The position numbers and the translations under genes were made by a program. The notes under the pieces were generated by a model, which did no database searches, was not told where the DNA came from, and saw only the letters and a list, made by a program, of their open reading frames with translations. Of a stretch of DNA of 64,000 bases, positions 14,665 to 22,966 are shown one piece after another (positions within the stretch are counted from its first letter, which is position 1; every line of letters begins with the position of its first letter). This DNA is from an uncultured Actinomycetes bacterium (GTDB lineage Bacteria; Actinomycetota; Coriobacteriia; Coriobacteriales; Atopobiaceae), in the NCBI GenBank assembly GCA_900314685.1, contig OMWE01000010.1:1-64000 (forward strand), in the 5' to 3' direction.

Positions 14665-14772
14665 GCCCGGCCGCCTCCACACGAAGCTAGAAGGGCTGGC
14701 CGCCTAGCGGAATTGTTTGACCACTAGACGGGGTCCACTTCACTTCATGCAACGTTGACTCGCTCCCCCCCC

Positions 14773-14926: not shown

Positions 14927-16028
14927 ATGAGCGAGTTCGCCACTCAGTGCCTCGAGCTGAGCGCGTCCATCCTTCGAGCATGCGCTCGCGGGCAACAAGA
15001 GCCCCATCATCTCCGCAGGTCCGCAGATATACGCGTTCTCCCCCGCCCCGAAGGATTCGTCCCTCCCCGCCTCGGGCTCGATCGACGAGCTCTCCGACTG
15101 GCTGCGCCGGCACGTGACCCGATACGACGCCCGTCAGGAGCTCACCCGCATCGCCTACGACGGCACCGGCTTCTGCGTCATCACCGCCTGCCCGCGTGCA
15201 CGGCTGCGCGCCAGCAACTTCCTCGGCGCGGGCCGCGTCTCCCTGCTGCTCACCTACGTGTGGCAGCAGACGGACGGCACCCCGCAGCTCATCCACACGC
15301 ATCTCAGCCTCATCGGCCTCACGCTCGAGACCGCCGAGCCCTACGGCGAGAACATGCTCGTACGTATCCCCGTCTCTCCGACCGATAGCCACACGTCGAT
15401 TCCCGGCGGCTTCGTCTCGCCGAGGGCATCGCGTGGGCAGTCCCGCGACGCAAAGACAAGCAATGCCTCAGCACCCTCCAGCGACGCAAAGACGGACGTT
15501 GTGGCATCGGACACACTGGGCTCACCCGACACGCTGAGCTCGCTTGTTTCGCCGGGCTCACCCGACACGCCGGGCTCGTCAGTCACATCGGGCTCGCCAG
15601 ACTCGTCCGACACGCCCGACGGCGCACCCGCAGGCGCGACCGCCCTCGACCTGCCCTCCAGCACCTATGTCATGCTGCGCGACACCGAGGGCAACGTCTA
15701 TTACACCGATGCGCGCCAGATCATCTACCTGGAGGCCGACCGCAACTACACCATCGTCCACGGCAAGACCACCACCGCCCGCTTCCGCGTCGGCCTCTCG
15801 GCCAAGATGGAGGTCATGCCCGATTTTTTCCTCCGCGTGCACCGCAGCTTCGCCGTCAACGCGCTGGAGGTCAAGACGATGACAGGCAGCGAGATCGTGC
15901 TCACCAACGGCGACAAGATCCCCGTCTCCGGCCGTTCCCGCGCCAGGGTCCGCGAGGAGCTCCACGCCGTCCAAGCCCGTTGGGCCAGCAAGCCCGGCGA
16001 TACCCCCCCGTCTGATTCGGACCAATAG
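14927..16028 (+). CDS. LytTR-domain regulator, apparently frameshifted near its 5' end
   Basis: The frame from ATG 14927 (MSEFATQCLELSASIL) changes at about 14972-14976 (CTT CGA). Dropping one base restores EHALAGNKSPIISAGPQ and a frame that continues to 16028. The long frame carries a non-conserved Ser/Pro/Asp-rich linker (about 15430-15640), then a C-terminal LytTR DNA-binding domain (IIYLEADRNYTIVHGKT...FLRVHRSFAVNALEV). There is no receiver domain. It converges on the pilus operon and could control it, which is inference. The shift could be a mutation, a sequencing error or programmed. GAGAGGAG lies before the ATG. Confidence 0.75.
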
Positions 16029-16261: not shown

Positions 16262-17017
16262 CTACTCCGTAGGCTTATCCTCATGCTTCTTGTGGCGCTT
16301 GAGCCAGAGGCCCAGCGTGATGGCAACGGCCGCGGCCGCCAGCAGGATGCCGGAAAAGACGGCCATGCCCCAGATCGGGTCGCTCGTCTGCGGCAGGCGG
16401 ACGCCAAAGATGGTGCGGCCGGGCTTGGCGGGCTTTTCGGGAGGCACCGTTTCGCCCGTGTAGGTCGGGTCGAACTCGATCCTGTCGGGCTTGGTGCCCT
16501 GATCGTCCTTGACCACGAGGCGCGCCACGTGGATGCCGTCGCCCTCGGCATCGTTCTCGACGGTCACGGACACGCGGTAGGACTTGCCGTCCAGCCACAG
16601 GTGCTCGTCGGAGGCGTCGGTCACGCAGCGCAGCGTGTACTCGTACACGCCGACGGTGTCGAAGGAGATGGCGTCGGCAGCAGCCTCGGCGCGCGTGCGC
16701 AGCGCGATGGCCTTGTCCGCCGTGCCGGTGATGGTGAAGTTGTACACGTCGCCCGTAGCGCCCGCGGGCAGCGGCGCGCCGTTCACAGCCGTCAACTCGT
16801 ACTCAAAGGTGCCGTCCGCCCACGCCTCGGGCACCTGACCCGTCGTGGAGTAGATCTGGTGGATGTCCAGCGCCTCGATGTCCGCCGCCAGCGCGCGCAG
16901 CGGCGCCGCCGCGAAAGCTGCAAGCATCACAAAAGTGGCGCACGCCAGCACGAGCGTACGCAGATGGCGCCCGGCACCGCCCGTCTTATGATCCTGTACC
17001 AATTTCATGTTGCTCAT
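16262..17017 (-). CDS. Minor (basal) pilin with LPQTS-type sorting signal
   Basis: A 251-residue surface protein. It has an N-terminal signal peptide (hydrophobic stretch ending near ALAAD, residue 45), one Spy0128-like pilin domain (YELTAVNGAPLPAG...YEYTLRCV), and a C-terminal sorting region: LPQTSD, a hydrophobic helix and a basic tail. Its place after the sortase matches the base pilin FctB of streptococcal FCT islands, where the LPXTG-like signal lets the housekeeping sortase attach the pilus to the wall. Its start overlaps the sortase stop by four bases. Confidence 0.85.
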   Translation of the reverse strand: MSNMKLVQDHKTGGAGRHLRTLVLACATFVMLAAFAAAPLRALAADIEALDIHQIYSTTGQVPEAWADGTFEYELTAVNGAPLPAGATGDVYNFTITGTADKAIALRTRAEAAADAISFDTVGVYEYTLRCVTDASDEHLWLDGKSYRVSVTVENDAEGDGIHVARLVVKDDQGTKPDRIEFDPTYTGETVPPEKPAKPGRTIFGVRLPQTSDPIWGMAVFSGILLAAAAVAITLGLWLKRHKKHEDKPTE

Positions 17018-17931
17018 AGCTTCCTATTCTTTCGTCCGTTCTTGTTGCTCTTGCGCGGAGCGCCGACCACCCACGCGATCGCGATGAAGACCAGCAGTGC
17101 GATGCCGACCTTTGCCCACAGCGGGAATCCCTCGTCCCGCGTGCCCGCGAGCGTGCGGCTGACCTCCTGCTCCTGGTACGGGTTGTCGTAGGTCTGGTCC
17201 GTGATCTTGGCGAAGACCACGTGCCGCCCGTTGGTGCCGGTGGCGCACGTGCTCAGCACCAGGATGTGGTCCTCGGGGCTGAGCTCGCCCTGCCACACGC
17301 CCGCGTGCTCGCGCACGTAGGCGATGAAGTCCTCCGTGCTGGGGTCCGTGCCCACCGAGGTGCTGTACACCGTCCGGTCGTACGCGTCGGCGTCCATGTA
17401 GGCGACGATCTCGATGCCGTGGTGGGCGCCATCGTAGTAGAGGTCCCCGTGGTTGTGCTGCTCCAGGTACGTGCTCTGCCCGTAGCGGTCCAGATCGCCG
17501 AACATCAACGAGTCTTCCATGTGGTGCCCGTAGATGATCGTGGCGGGCGCGCTGAAGTCGTTCGGCTGGCGGTAGTCGATGAAGAGGGACCCGGAGAGGG
17601 CAAACGCACCCGTCGGATCGGTATTGAGGTACTTCTCGTTGTCCTCGCCCCGGACCACCGGGTAGTCCACGCCCGTGCCGTAGATGGTGAGCCACGCGCA
17701 GACGTCCGGGTTTGTGGCCTGGAGCTCGGAGAAGCCGGGCCCATCCGCATCGGGCTTGTACGACTCGAAGACCTCCGCGGATGCCTCGTCGACCACCCGA
17801 CCGTTGTCCACCAGGACGTAGGCCGAGTAGACGACGATAATCACCACTAGTGACAAGACCAACCCGTCGACCAGCCAATTGGCTAGCCGTATGGCCCCTT
17901 TGGCCAGCCGACGGGTCAGGTCATGCCACAT
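17014..17931 (-). CDS. Class B sortase, pilus-specific
   Basis: A 305-residue membrane transpeptidase. An N-terminal helix (about residues 15-42) and a C-terminal helix flank the catalytic domain. The catalytic triad is visible: His in IIYGHHM, Cys in LVLSTCATG, Arg in NGRHVVFAKI. The class B-like start FSELQATNPDVCAWLTIYGTGVDYPVV is present (key part NPDVCAWLTI). It lies between the major and minor pilin genes and should polymerise the pilus, as SrtC2 (also class B) does in Streptococcus pyogenes. Confidence 0.92.
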   Translation of the reverse strand: MWHDLTRRLAKGAIRLANWLVDGLVLSLVVIIVVYSAYVLVDNGRVVDEASAEVFESYKPDADGPGFSELQATNPDVCAWLTIYGTGVDYPVVRGEDNEKYLNTDPTGAFALSGSLFIDYRQPNDFSAPATIIYGHHMEDSLMFGDLDRYGQSTYLEQHNHGDLYYDGAHHGIEIVAYMDADAYDRTVYSTSVGTDPSTEDFIAYVREHAGVWQGELSPEDHILVLSTCATGTNGRHVVFAKITDQTYDNPYQEQEVSRTLAGTRDEGFPLWAKVGIALLVFIAIAWVVGAPRKSNKNGRKNRKL

Positions 17932-17943
17932 TCCGAGCGAACC

Positions 17944-19002
17944 TTACTTCTCGAGCTTACGCTTGGCGGTGCCGTAAGCAGCGACGCCGGCAGCAGCGAC
18001 GCCGATCATCACGATGAAGGGCGCGTTGTTGACGATGAGGCCGGTGACGACGGTGTCATTCTTGGCATTGGTCACCGTGACATTGGCGCCGGTCTCCGCG
18101 AGAACGGTATCGTTCTTGACCTCGCCAGTAGTCGTGTAGCCAGCTTGACCGGACTCGGTCTCGGTAACCTTATAGGTGGTACCGACAACCACATTATCGA
18201 AGGTTACAGAGCCGGCATCGGCAGCCTTGAAGGTCCAGGAGCCGTCGTCGTTCTGCGTAAGGTTGGAGACGGTAGTACCCGGCTTAGCGGTAGCAGTGAT
18301 GGATTTCACGGTCCAGCCATCTGGTACGTTACTGGGAGCAGTGAAGTTCACAGTGAAATCGAAGAGCTTGGTCTTATCACCCTGCGCACCAGTAACGGTC
18401 TTCGTCACCACGAGAGGCTTGTTCTCGCCGTCGTTGGTCTTCTCGGTGTAGGTGTTTGTGAAAGTCGCGGTCGTAACCTTCTTGCTAGCGTCATTCGTCG
18501 TGGAAGTAGTGCCATCCTTCACGAGCTTGACATCGCTGACCCACTCTGTAGTGTGAGTGTCGTCAGCGTTGCTGACGGTAGCAATCAACGTGTAAGTCTC
18601 GGTATCATAGACCATGCCAGTGGTGCTACCAGCGGTCTCGGCAACCTTCCAAGCGTAAACACCAGCATGAGGAAGAGTAGGAAGAACAATGCCGTAGGTC
18701 GCAGTCGTCTCCGTTTCATCGGAAGCTGCGGACAGAGCAGTGGTAGTGATGGTCGCATTGCCATACTCAGTCGTCGCCACGGTTGCGGTTGCATTAGCGG
18801 CGTTCTGGTTCAGCTGAACGGGGGTTGCCGTAAAGGCAAACTGCTCGGAGACCGTGGAACCCGCATTTGTCTCGAGCTTCTTCGTAACACCATTATTCAC
18901 AGTGTACTCAGCCGTAGCACCAAACGCCGCAACGGGGCTCAGCGCCATGACCAGGGACAGACCGGCTGCGACGGCGCCCACGCTCTTCTTTCCAAATTTC
19001 AT
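17944..19002 (-). CDS. Major pilin, Spy0128 (FctA)-like shaft protein
   Basis: A 352-residue secreted pilin. I chose the ATG at 19002 (MKFGKKSVGAVAAGLS) with GGAAGG upstream. The signal peptide ends near AAFGA. Two Spy0128-type beta domains follow (AGVYAWKVAETAG and a second with FDNVVVGTTYKVTETESGQ), whose Lys, Glu and Asn residues could make internal isopeptide bonds. The C-terminus has a non-LPXTG sorting motif, NDTVVTGL, then a hydrophobic helix and KRKLEK. The motif recalls the EVPTG/QVPTG signals handled by class B pilus sortases. It is 12 bases from the sortase gene. Confidence 0.9.
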   Translation of the reverse strand: MKFGKKSVGAVAAGLSLVMALSPVAAFGATAEYTVNNGVTKKLETNAGSTVSEQFAFTATPVQLNQNAANATATVATTEYGNATITTTALSAASDETETTATYGIVLPTLPHAGVYAWKVAETAGSTTGMVYDTETYTLIATVSNADDTHTTEWVSDVKLVKDGTTSTTNDASKKVTTATFTNTYTEKTNDGENKPLVVTKTVTGAQGDKTKLFDFTVNFTAPSNVPDGWTVKSITATAKPGTTVSNLTQNDDGSWTFKAADAGSVTFDNVVVGTTYKVTETESGQAGYTTTGEVKNDTVLAETGANVTVTNAKNDTVVTGLIVNNAPFIVMIGVAAAGVAAYGTAKRKLEK

Positions 19003-19075: not shown

Positions 19076-19705
19076 TCAGAAGTTGCGCCTCCTGATGATC
19101 GTCATTGCCTCGCCTTCGGTACCGGTGTCGATGTCGACCGGCCCGTAGATCCTGCTGTCCTTCGACGACGGGCGGTTGTCGCCCATCACGAAGACCTGCC
19201 CCGCTCCGACGGTGACCGGGTAGGTGATGCCGTCCGTGAACGGCTCGGTCTCGGCGTAGATGCTGGTCTCGCTCTGCAGGTAGCCGTTGATCAGCAACCC
19301 GTCGGAACTGAAATCCACCTCGTCGCCCTCGACCGCGATAACGCGCCGCACCTCCTCGTCGTCTCCGTCGTCCACCACGATCAGGTCGCCTGCCACGTAG
19401 TCCTTTTGCAGGCGGTAGTACACCACCAGGTCGCCCTCGCGCACCGCGGGCCGCATGCTCTCGTCCCCCACCTGGACCACGCCAAAGAGGAAGAGGAACA
19501 CCATCGCGATGAACCCGAGCACCATCGCCACCTTCAGCAAGAGCAGGATGAGCTGCGTCCCCAGTGGCTGGTCGGAGTCATCGGACCCCACCGTCGCCTC
19601 CGGTGCGGCCTGTACGCCTGTCGCGAAGCGGCCCTGCGTCTCGGTGAGATCGGGGTCCGCCGCGAACCTGGCGTGACGCCGGCCGTAGGCCTCGTGCTTA
19701 GGCAT
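19076..19705 (-). CDS. SipA-like type I signal peptidase homologue of the pilus island
   Basis: A 209-residue S26-family protein with one N-terminal membrane helix (about residues 55-75). The catalytic Ser box is present as GDESMRPAV and box E as VMGDNRPSSKDSR. The general-base Lys of the VKR box is Arg here (EEVRRVIAVEGD). In streptococcal FCT islands the matching SipA has lost its catalytic residues and acts as a pilin chaperone, so partial loss here is notable. The start at 19705 lies five bases after GGAGG and overlaps the adhesin stop. Confidence 0.88.
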   Translation of the reverse strand: MPKHEAYGRRHARFAADPDLTETQGRFATGVQAAPEATVGSDDSDQPLGTQLILLLLKVAMVLGFIAMVFLFLFGVVQVGDESMRPAVREGDLVVYYRLQKDYVAGDLIVVDDGDDEEVRRVIAVEGDEVDFSSDGLLINGYLQSETSIYAETEPFTDGITYPVTVGAGQVFVMGDNRPSSKDSRIYGPVDIDTGTEGEAMTIIRRRNF

Positions 19706-22480
19706 CATCCCCTCCGCGCATGTGCGAGCCCTGGCGGGACGCGCCCTTGAGGTTGGTACCCCGGTGGGTCGCACTCTTGTGGTTGGTACGCCTATGCCAG
19801 CCGCGCGCGGTGTGCGCGCCGGTGGTTGCGGATTCTAGGGCGTTGCGCTGCAGGAGCGCCATTCCGCCCACGATTGTGAACGCCGCGACGGCGACCGCCG
19901 TGAGCGCGCCCGGGATGCCGGCCGATTTGATGCCGGTGATCACGGTGTTGGTCTTGGTGTTGGTGAAGACGATCGTGGTGTCGCCGTTGAGGACAATCTG
20001 CGCGCCATTGCTGTAGTCCTGCGAGTCGCCGTCCCCAACCTTGTAGGTCGTCGTATAGCCGTCCTGGTTAGCCTTGTCCTCCGTCACCGTTACAGTGTCG
20101 CCGTACTTGAAATTGAATGTTGCGAAGCTTCCTTCGGTCGTATCGGCATTTCCGTCGGCAGTGGTGTCCTTAATCGTCGCGGTCTGCTCCGTGTTGTTCG
20201 GACCAGTCACCTTGACTTCCCAGGTCTTGGTCGTATCCGCCTGAGCACCCGTCAGGTTCTTCTGAATTGTCAGAGTGACGTTCTGACGGGCGTTGACCAC
20301 GGTGACGGCCACTTTGCTGTCGTCAACAGTAATGTTCTGGTTCCCATCGTCCAGCGTGGCGACAAGGATGTACTGGCCGTCCTGGTCCTTCTCATAAGCC
20401 ACATGCAGCGCATGGGTCATGGTGGCAGGCAGGTCGTAGCCGTTAGGTGCCGCGGTCTCGGTGATTGTGTAGTCGCCAGTGGCCAGGCTGGCGATGGAGA
20501 AGGTGCCCTTGGCGTCGCTATTGGCCGCAGTCTCGAACTCGTGCACCACGGTGCCCAGCGTGCCGTCAGCCTGCACGTACTTGGTCACGGCATCGTCGCC
20601 CTCGCCCATGGTCTGCGAGACGGTGAACTTGGCGCCACTCAGCTTAGTGCTGGGGTTCTCGCTGTCCACCTTGGTAAGGGTGAAGCTGCAGGTAGCAGGC
20701 ATGTAGGTGTTGGTAATCTCCACTTTGTCCGTGCTGCCGGCTTGAACCGTAGTTTCGATGGCATTCTCGTAGGTCGAGGTCATGCTATAACCTTCCACCG
20801 CTGCGGCGTCCGCGTCCTCGGTGGTTGTAAAGGTCACGGACTGGCCGGAGGTCACGGTCACATCCTTGCTGGTGTAGGTGAGTTTGTAGGAGCCGTTGGC
20901 GCCCTCAGTCACGCCGGTGAGGGTCAGGTCCACAGGGTTATCGCCCACCTTGGTTGAGATGAAGCTCTTCTGCTCCAGGTCGGACACCTGCTCTTTCGTC
21001 AGGCCCTCAACGGTCTTCTCCACCGTCAGACGAGCCTTGTCCTGCGCGACAGAAGGCTGATTCTGGCTGTATGACACATGATCCAGGAAGTTGCCAACCG
21101 TGCTGTTACCACTCGCCGTGTCGACTGCCATGAAAAAGTAGCGGGAGGTGAACTGACCCTCGGGGACGGTCATTTCGCCGGAGCAGTTCTTCCATTCTGA
21201 TTTGAGATATGGGCTGTCATGCCAAAAGCCCCACCTATCATAGTATCCAGATTGATATGTTATACCTGCAGTGTCCTGGTACACATAGACGGTGTAGGTC
21301 TTATCTCCACTTGTGACCTTGTTGTCACCGTTCTTGTTTGTCAAGCTGGCATAGAAATCCTGCAGCTGTTTTTGGGTCGTAATATCCTCAACCAGTTCAA
21401 CAGGCGCGATTATCAAGGCCATCGTGTCGCCCTTGCTATAGTTTTGGTTGATTCTGTTATCGCCGGCCGTGCGGGCACGATGCGCGAAGCTCCAGTACAT
21501 GGTCTGGCCCGGCATGGTCAGCACGTCTTGGTAAAGAGTGCTGTACTGGTCTGCATTGAGCTCGGCGAAGTAGGTTCCGTCAGCAGCACCCTGATCAGGG
21601 TCAGAACTAGAGACGTACCACTGCATGCCGTTAGCCCTGCCCTGGCCAATCTCGATGTGAGGCGAGGTCGAGTTCCAGCTGGGTACGGTGCTTGAGGGAT
21701 TTTGATCATTGAAGTAGGCCGCAGTGTTGTTCTCGAAGGAGCCATTTTCAAGCTCGCCAGCATAGGTGACGGTCTTCTGTGCGGTTAGATTGGTCTGCCC
21801 CGCCTTGGAGACCGTCACGGTGTAGGTAGCCTTCGCACCATTGGTATACGCAACGTTAATCCAGCCACCATTCTGCTCGACAGCCTGGACGGTACCAGTG
21901 GTGGTGACCTTCTTGAGGCCATTGCTGCAATCAGCACCATTGGAGCTGGACCACTTGACCGTGTAGCCGGCGGCGGCGAGCCTGGCGGCGGCCTCGGCGC
22001 CCGTGTACTCCTTGCCGTCGATGGTCGCCTTGAGGATAAACTGACCGTTGGCCTTGACGTCATCCTGGATAACTATTGCGGTCGCAGTCGCGTTGGTCGG
22101 GTAGTCACCATCGCCGACGAGATCCTCATCCTCGGTTCCGATCTCAGCGGCCTTTGCCTCGGCAGCAATCTTATCAGACGTGTCAGCATCGTCAGACACG
22201 TTAGCGCCATCGGCAGTATCGTCATCTGCCCTCTTTGGGGCAACAGCATCTGCCGCTACGTTATCATCAACGGAATTATCAGTCGCATCGGTATCTACCG
22301 ACGGGACGGCGGCGACCGACTCGGTCTCCTGCACAGCATCTTCCGGCTCGGTAGCACGCGCGATGTCAACACCGTTCAGCGCGAGCACCATGGCCAGCGT
22401 CACGGCGAACACGGGGAGCAACCCGATCAGCCACTTTACTGGGCTTTGCCTACGAAGCCCCCCCCCCGGTTCTTACTCAT
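19698..22480 (-). CDS. Large pilus tip adhesin (Cpa position), out of frame at a G10 tract
   Basis: From ATG 22480, preceded by GGGGGAG, the first codons (MSKNRGG) run into ten consecutive Gs and then out of frame to a stop. With 8 or 11 Gs the frame joins the 907-residue frame from 22421 and completes a normal signal peptide (RRQSPVKWLIGLLPVF...ARA). Next come an acidic linker, an Ig-like domain, a galactose-binding-like domain (LENGSFENN...GTYFAELNA), a SpaA/Cna-B type domain (TLTKVDSENPSTKLSGAKF), a Spy0128-like domain, the sorting motif NTVITGI with a helix, and an unusual 45-residue His/Arg-rich tail. It is the first gene of the pilus operon. Confidence 0.85.
22458..22467 (-). repeat. 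Homopolymer tract (G10 on the coding strand) at the adhesin start
   Basis: Ten Cs on the plus strand read as ten Gs in codons 5-8 of the adhesin. In-frame translation needs 8 or 11 Gs. A tract this long in a high-GC coding region is prone to slipped-strand mispairing. Confidence 0.95.
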
Positions 22481-22966
22481 ATGTTGCTCCCCCAAACTCA
22501 CTACCAACCTCGCGCGAAGGACACGCCACGCTGGCTCCATTTGCATTCCGTGCGGTGGCGCCTGCTTGCTGCGGAAGGCCGCCAGCCGGCGCTGATAGTT
22601 GGACCGATCTAATTCTTGTACTTGTACAGGCTATTCTCATCCCTCTGGTATTACGATATTGCGACTTGGGGACGAACAGCAGGAAAATTGGTACGAAAGT
22701 TCAGATTTCGTTCAGTTTCGAACAGCCTCCGCCTGTCTTTCCGCCGCCACTTGTCCTCCCGCCTCGGCTTGTCTTGCCGCCTCGGCGCGGTCGCCTCTCG
22801 CCTGTCTGCGCCTCTTGCCTTTCTTCTTCTCGAATGCGATGCCATTGTACCGTCATGCGCCGCCGCGCCACTTATATATATGTAAGCGCTCGGTATGCGG
22901 AAGTGCCCGGCGCATCTGCAACCGTATCGCGTACTTGGTGCGCAACGTCTTGCACGGCCAGCGATA
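22481..22966. other. Gap upstream of the pilus operon and the ATPase-nuclease gene
   Basis: This region holds the divergent promoters of the pilus operon (minus strand) and the ATPase-nuclease gene (plus strand). The middle (about 22735-22830) has imperfect minus-strand repeats of a GGCAAGACAAGCCGAGGCGG type. A basic open frame on the minus strand (22651-22845) has no good ribosome site. The base composition is lower in GC than the neighbours near 22590-22720, as in many regulatory regions. Confidence 0.4.

What the first reader, a model, noticed from the sequence alone, without database searches (positions are those of the whole stretch)
22400..22490. Phase-variable start of the pilus adhesin: a G10 tract puts the gene out of frame
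Seen: ATG 22480 has a good ribosome site and seven codons, then ten Gs that shift the frame to an early stop. With 8 or 11 Gs the frame joins the long adhesin frame and yields a canonical signal peptide (basic start, hydrophobic core, ARA cleavage). Known: homopolymeric tracts in surface-protein genes vary by slipped-strand mispairing. Inference: this assembly captured the OFF state and the pilus tip is switched at high frequency.
Basis: partly seen in the sequence, partly recalled or inferred. Interest (0 to 1): 0.88.

Follow-up and report, generated by a model that had tools for sequence, protein, structure and literature searches.

The report
G-tract on/off switch for gut-bacterium pilus
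A run of ten Gs just after the start of a pilus adhesin gene puts the gene out of frame in this assembly, and because the same arrangement occurs in related bacteria in both readable and unreadable lengths, it is very probably an on/off switch of a kind already shown in bifidobacteria but not reported (as far as we could search) for this group.

Summary
On the minus strand, ATG 22480 (Shine-Dalgarno GGGGGAG) is followed by three codons, a C and G10 (22467-22458). As assembled, the frame stops after 14 codons. A tract of 8 or 11 Gs joins it to the 907-codon adhesin frame and completes a signal peptide.

It is more than chance. The 2.35-Mb genome holds only nine G/C runs of 8 or more, against about 120 expected. 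Four lie at the start of secreted-protein genes, all out of frame, and two in LytTR regulators. A syntenic Olsenella operon has the same N-terminus, ungapped, without the tract, so ATG 22480 is the real start.

Among relatives the arrangement SD-ATG-G tract-signal peptide recurs in both states. Three orthologous pairs carry readable and unreadable lengths. One pair is identical over 164 bp except G9 versus G10; another is a sortase-pilus adhesin.

The operon is FCT-like: adhesin, SipA, FctA-type pilin, class B sortase, minor pilin. SipA overlaps the adhesin's end, so OFF probably lowers the whole pilus. Penno et al. 2022 showed this mechanism in Bifidobacterium breve, so it is a new member of a known kind. 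Switching in this strain was not measured.

The parts
22487..22493 (-). Shine-Dalgarno-like GGGGGAG, six bases before the ATG
   Evidence: sequence; GGAG at 22490-22487 also in the pattern hit
22478..22480 (-). start codon ATG of the adhesin gene
   Evidence: N-terminal homology with the syntenic relative L030
22458..22467 (-). G10 tract in codons 5-8: the presumed slippage site, out of frame as assembled
22353..22480 (-). signal peptide, split between two frames at this tract length
   Evidence: translation and alignment
19698..22480 (-). adhesin / ancillary pilus protein gene (907 codons from TTG 22421; SpaA domain, weak DUF7601)
19076..19708 (-). SipA-like signal peptidase; start codon overlaps the end of the adhesin gene
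17944..19002 (-). FctA-type pilin (T18.1, Spy0128 relatives)
17014..17931 (-). class B-type pilus sortase
16262..17017 (-). minor pilin with FctA-like domain and LPQTS anchor
15114..16028 (+). LytTR-domain regulator convergent to the operon, in the same place as in relative G009; possible pilus regulator

Best explanation
The gene is a translational contingency locus. Replication slippage in the G tract at codon 5 changes its length. Only lengths of 2 mod 3 (8 or 11 Gs) join the start codon to the signal peptide and adhesin frame. Other lengths give a 14-codon or similarly short peptide. Because the adhesin is the first gene of an FCT-like pilus operon and SipA starts inside its last codons, OFF should also reduce the downstream pilus genes by lost translational coupling and transcriptional polarity. 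The assembly shows an OFF length. Shown: frames, start codon homology, operon, the genome-wide repertoire, and length variation of such tracts between close relatives. Inferred: slippage in this strain, polarity, and adhesion as the selected trait.
For: Tract and frames. Ungapped N-terminal homology of a tract-free syntenic relative. In the whole genome, 4 of 9 runs >=8 sit at starts of signal-peptide genes, all out of frame. Family-wide, SD-ATG-G8 occurs in 43 of 140 genomes against 10 for the reversed control pattern; of 47 sites read, 17 are signal-peptide genes, 10 OFF and 7 ON. Orthologous ON/OFF pairs: L178/L181, L236/L237, identical over 164 bp except tract length, and L243/L244, a VWA+FctA pilus adhesin. 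The same mechanism is demonstrated in B. breve pilus operons (PMC9187656).
Against: No reads or conspecific genome could be examined. The homologous operons in G009 and G035 have no tract, so the switch at this gene is not conserved. No promoter was recognised upstream of the gene. Tract lengths in draft assemblies can be off by one.
Confidence: 0.87

Rival explanations
1. Assembly or consensus error: the true tract is in frame (8 or 11) and the gene is simply ON.
For: The genome is a 57-contig draft and homopolymers of ten are error-prone. Two other frame breaks without a homopolymer were seen, near 14990 in the window and near L033:14190, so the assembly may hold some indels.
Against: Three further surface genes with G tracts in the same genome are also out of frame, and relatives show true length differences between orthologues. 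Even with an error here, the tract would remain a slippage-prone site.
Confidence: 0.07
2. A one-way pseudogene: the frame was lost for good and the tract is incidental.
For: The gene cannot be translated from its start as assembled. The homologue in G009 is broken at another place.
Against: 907 codons without a stop and an intact operon behind it. The tract position repeats in many surface genes. The frame is regained by single slippage steps.
Confidence: 0.04
3. Transcriptional slippage at G10 yields some in-frame mRNA, so the gene is leaky rather than switched at the DNA level.
For: Long homopolymers can cause transcriptional slippage (general knowledge).
Against: DNA-level length differences between otherwise identical relatives already suffice; nothing here tests it. 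It could coexist with the main explanation.
Confidence: 0.1
4. Translation starts at TTG 22421 and the tract lies in the leader.
For: It is the first listed start codon of the long frame.
Against: No Shine-Dalgarno sequence before it, no basic n-region, and the relative's protein starts at the position of ATG 22480.
Confidence: 0.02

Closest known systems
G-tract replication-slippage switch of sortase-dependent pili, Bifidobacterium breve UCC2003 bbr_0113 and bbr_1889 (Penno et al. 2022, PMC9187656)
   Same: G10-G12 tract near the start of the first gene of a sortase-pilus cluster, separating start and Sec signal from the pilin frame; the deposited sequence is out of frame; a downstream start without a Shine-Dalgarno sequence; suspected polarity on the genes behind.
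   Different: Another class (Coriobacteriia), an FCT-like operon with SipA and a class B-type sortase. There the slippage and pili were measured; here they are inferred from sequence.
FCT / PI-2 type pilus loci of streptococci
   Same: Order adhesin, SipA, FctA-type backbone, class B-type sortase, minor pilin; matches to solved SipA, T18.1/Spy0128 and 3psq.
   Different: No G tract at the adhesin start is part of the streptococcal description known to me; the adhesin itself has no close solved relative.
Homopolymer-driven phase variation in Gardnerella (PMC11287997)
   Same: Abundant variable homopolymer tracts in an actinomycete; slipped-strand mispairing proposed.
   Different: Shown there with colony variants and resequencing; not this gene class specifically.

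Membership tests
Homopolymer (slipped-strand) translational phase-variable gene | repeat tract inside the 5' coding region whose length sets the reading frame | tested here: met
Homopolymer (slipped-strand) translational phase-variable gene | intact downstream frame and true start upstream of the tract | tested here: met
   907-codon frame; N-terminal homology
Homopolymer (slipped-strand) translational phase-variable gene | tract length varies between cells or strains at this locus | not testable with these tools
   no reads or conspecific genomes; shown only for other genes with the same arrangement in relatives
Homopolymer (slipped-strand) translational phase-variable gene | reversible change of expression | not testable with these tools
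   needs cultures
Sortase-dependent pilus G-tract switch (B. breve type) | tract in the first gene of a pilin-sortase cluster, before or in the signal peptide | tested here: met
Sortase-dependent pilus G-tract switch (B. breve type) | OFF tract lowers transcription of the downstream pilus genes and abolishes pili | not testable with these tools
   only the coupling geometry could be read
FCT-like pilus operon | SipA-like protein, FctA-type pilin and class B-type sortase together | tested here: met
   (class B model TIGR03064 at 142.9 bits, just under its cut-off of 153.75)

The most novel reading that the evidence does not exclude
The window's family (Atopobiaceae) and the other families of its order that hold most hits use one common device: a G tract placed between start codon and signal peptide. 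With it each cell switches a whole set of pilins and adhesins, some LytTR regulators of surface genes and, through leader ORFs that end at the next gene's start codon in one frame only, BREX and helicase defence operons. If true, piliation and phage defence vary independently from cell to cell in common gut bacteria.
Probability: 0.45. Interest if true: 0.72.

Novelty: new member of a known kind. Interest (0 to 1): 0.56.

Why it matters
Atopobiaceae and their relatives are common gut and rumen bacteria with little genetics. If their pili and adhesins are contingency loci, single-genome annotation will miss genes in the OFF state and call them pseudogenes, and colonisation differences between cells of one strain become testable from existing metagenomic reads by counting tract lengths. 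It also suggests that G-tract control of sortase pili is a wider habit of Actinomycetota than the bifidobacterial cases.

Tried and rejected
A scan of genome contigs with the adhesin found no relatives. A pattern scan of IMG/VR for the tract flank found nothing. AlphaFold of a 361-residue adhesin segment gave pLDDT 39.5, so no fold search was made. Invertible-promoter alternative: no inverted repeat of 12 bp or more in 22300-22950. Sigma-70-type scan: no promoter-like site found upstream of ATG 22480 on the minus strand. Literature: no paper in the library joins phase variation, homopolymeric tracts and Collinsella, and the searches gave no Coriobacteriia case among the papers listed; that is weak evidence of absence.

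Full report
What is there. On the minus strand the sequence reads TTTGGGGGAGCAACAT ATG AGT AAG AAC C GGGGGGGGGG CTTCGTAGGCAAAGCCCAG TAA. The ten Gs are 22467-22458. As assembled, translation from ATG 22480 ends after 14 codons. The long frame, listed by the ORF finder from TTG 22421 to 19698, is joined to that ATG when the tract has 8 or 11 Gs. The joined protein then begins with a basic segment, a hydrophobic core and a plausible ARA|TE cleavage site.

Which start is real. The best relative is contig G035:C14 (L030; the same contig comes up as uncultured Olsenella sp. RUG004, and Olsenella belongs to the Atopobiaceae). It carries the same five genes in the same order. Its adhesin starts MSKIRRELRQLSPAKRLLGLLPVLVVAFAMVAALSGVGVAGATEPE. 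It aligns without a gap, from the initiator methionine on, to the window's reading with eight Gs, MSKNRGGLRRQSPVKWLIGLLPVFAVTLAMVLALNGVDIARATEPE. So ATG 22480 is the ancestral start, the tract sits where the relative has Arg-Arg-Glu, and TTG 22421 is an artefact of ORF listing. The relative and a second, more distant one (G009, L029) have no run of seven or more Gs in this region, so the tract at this gene appears to be an innovation of the window's lineage.

The operon. Downstream lie a SipA-like signal peptidase (closest solved chains SipA 4n31 and LepA 4k8w), an FctA-type pilin (T18.1, T3.2, Spy0128), a class B-type sortase (4y4q, 3psq; class B model TIGR03064 just below its cut-off) and a small pilin with an FctA-like domain and an LPQTS anchor. 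The adhesin itself has a SpaA domain and a weak DUF7601 match. This is the layout of the streptococcal FCT/PI-2 pilus loci (order from general knowledge). The SipA start ATG 19708 lies inside the last codons of the adhesin (stop 19700-19698). Loss of translation of the adhesin should therefore also hit SipA and, by polarity, the genes behind it. In B. breve a polarity effect of this kind was described at the corresponding genes (PMC9187656). Here it is an inference.

Is it chance? The window is 65% G+C. A first-order model predicts about 122 G or C runs of eight or more and 33 of nine or more in 2.35 Mb. Nine and five are found, so long G runs are removed by selection or repair. I read the context of all nine. 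Four sit at the 5' end of genes for secreted proteins: this adhesin; a MucBP/InlB-repeat protein ending in LPATG; an InlB-repeat protein with LPATG (L118); and an InlB-repeat protein whose C-terminus is not held. All four are out of frame as assembled. Two are in frame in LytTR regulators, one beside a VWA/FctA pilus locus. One is about 155 bp upstream of the LytTR gene that lies convergent to the present operon. One takes the place of the ribosome site of an ABC transporter gene. One is intergenic. With a generous target of 24 kb for secreted-gene starts (my assumption), four of nine has a probability near 1e-6.

Relatives. Because only one genome per species is held and no conspecific was available, I asked whether the arrangement itself is found in both states elsewhere. 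The pattern GGAG-(4-12)-ATG-(6-36)-G8 is present in 43 of 140 genomes of the family, and the same pattern reversed in 10. Of 47 such sites read, 17 are followed by a signal peptide and a long ORF, ten out of frame and seven in frame. Where a domain was recognised it was of the kind found in pilins and adhesins: VWA with FctA, SpaA with GramPos_pilinBB, Cna_B, collagen-binding, ChW repeats. A class-wide sample gave 86 of 298 genomes, nearly all within the window's own order. Three orthologous pairs differ in state. L178/L181: G10 OFF against G8 ON, flanks about 98% identical. L236/L237: a pilin-like protein with DUF6273, identical over 164 bp except for G9 ON against G10 OFF. L243/L244: a long VWA+FctA adhesin, G9 ON against G10 OFF. 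Such pairs are what slippage predicts, and they make a coincidence of assembly errors unlikely, although any one tract length in a draft assembly can be off by one.

Mechanism. The best-supported account is a translational on/off switch by replication slippage, upstream of the signal peptide, in the first gene of a pilus operon. Shown here: the frames, the start, the operon, the genome-wide association of G tracts with surface genes, and length differences in relatives. Inferred: that this strain switches, at what rate, that OFF silences the whole pilus, and that adhesion or immune exposure is what is selected.

Comparison with what is known. Penno et al. 2022 (PMC9187656) demonstrated replication slippage at G tracts in the first gene of two sortase-pilus clusters of B. 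breve. They measured mixed tract lengths and found similar tracts in other bifidobacteria. Gardnerella has many variable homopolymer tracts (PMC11287997). The present case works in the same way in another class of Actinomycetota. It is a new member of a known kind. I did not find in the library any report for Coriobacteriia; that library is partial.

Remaining doubt. No reads could be examined, so the possibility that the true consensus has a readable length remains (about 7%). That would change the state captured but not the nature of the tract. A one-way loss of the gene is disfavoured by the intact 907-codon frame and the intact genes behind it.

Noticed in passing
L198:3482-4200 (G113), also L185, L186, L189, L190, L192, L193, L200, L201, L246, L247: In relatives, a short leader ORF with a G8-G10 tract precedes BREX (BrxA-BrxB-BrxC) or HKD+Snf2 helicase operons. 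In one frame only, the leader's stop codon falls right at the next gene's start, which suggests a phase-variable translational-coupling switch of defence genes.
   Followed up: partly
L033:16045-16053 (G000:C31:44044) and L035:8524-8533 (G000:C57): C9 and C10 tracts in the linkers of two LytTR-domain regulators, both in frame as assembled; one lies beside a VWA/FctA pilus locus. Phase-variable regulators would switch several genes at once.
   Followed up: partly
window 14765-14772: C8 run about 155 bp upstream of the LytTR regulator that is convergent to the pilus operon; it may be a promoter-spacing tract.
   Followed up: no
window 14927-15114: The N-terminus of the LytTR regulator is in another frame than its body when compared with the G009 homologue (L029:8267-9406), with no homopolymer at the break; either an indel in the assembly or a decayed gene.
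   Followed up: partly
L033:14150-14310 (G000:C31): A VWA pilus adhesin gene and a 1,900-codon FctA-repeat frame behind it are joined only by a frame break near L033:14190 without a homopolymer.
   Followed up: no
L029:12812-12840 (G009:C14): The homologous adhesin gene of G009 is interrupted by a frame break at about residue 211.
   Followed up: no
L225, L226, L228, L231-L237 (G242, G338, G225, G313, G266): Several paralogous genes starting MHAA, with a Flp/Tad-pilin-like hydrophobic segment right after a G9/G10 tract, in mixed ON and OFF states within one genome.
   Followed up: partly
L161 (G078:C1:375595), L139 (G025), L152 (G015): Very long G runs (28, 24 and 21) in family members; the G28 run lies shortly before what looks like a glycosyltransferase gene.
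   Followed up: no
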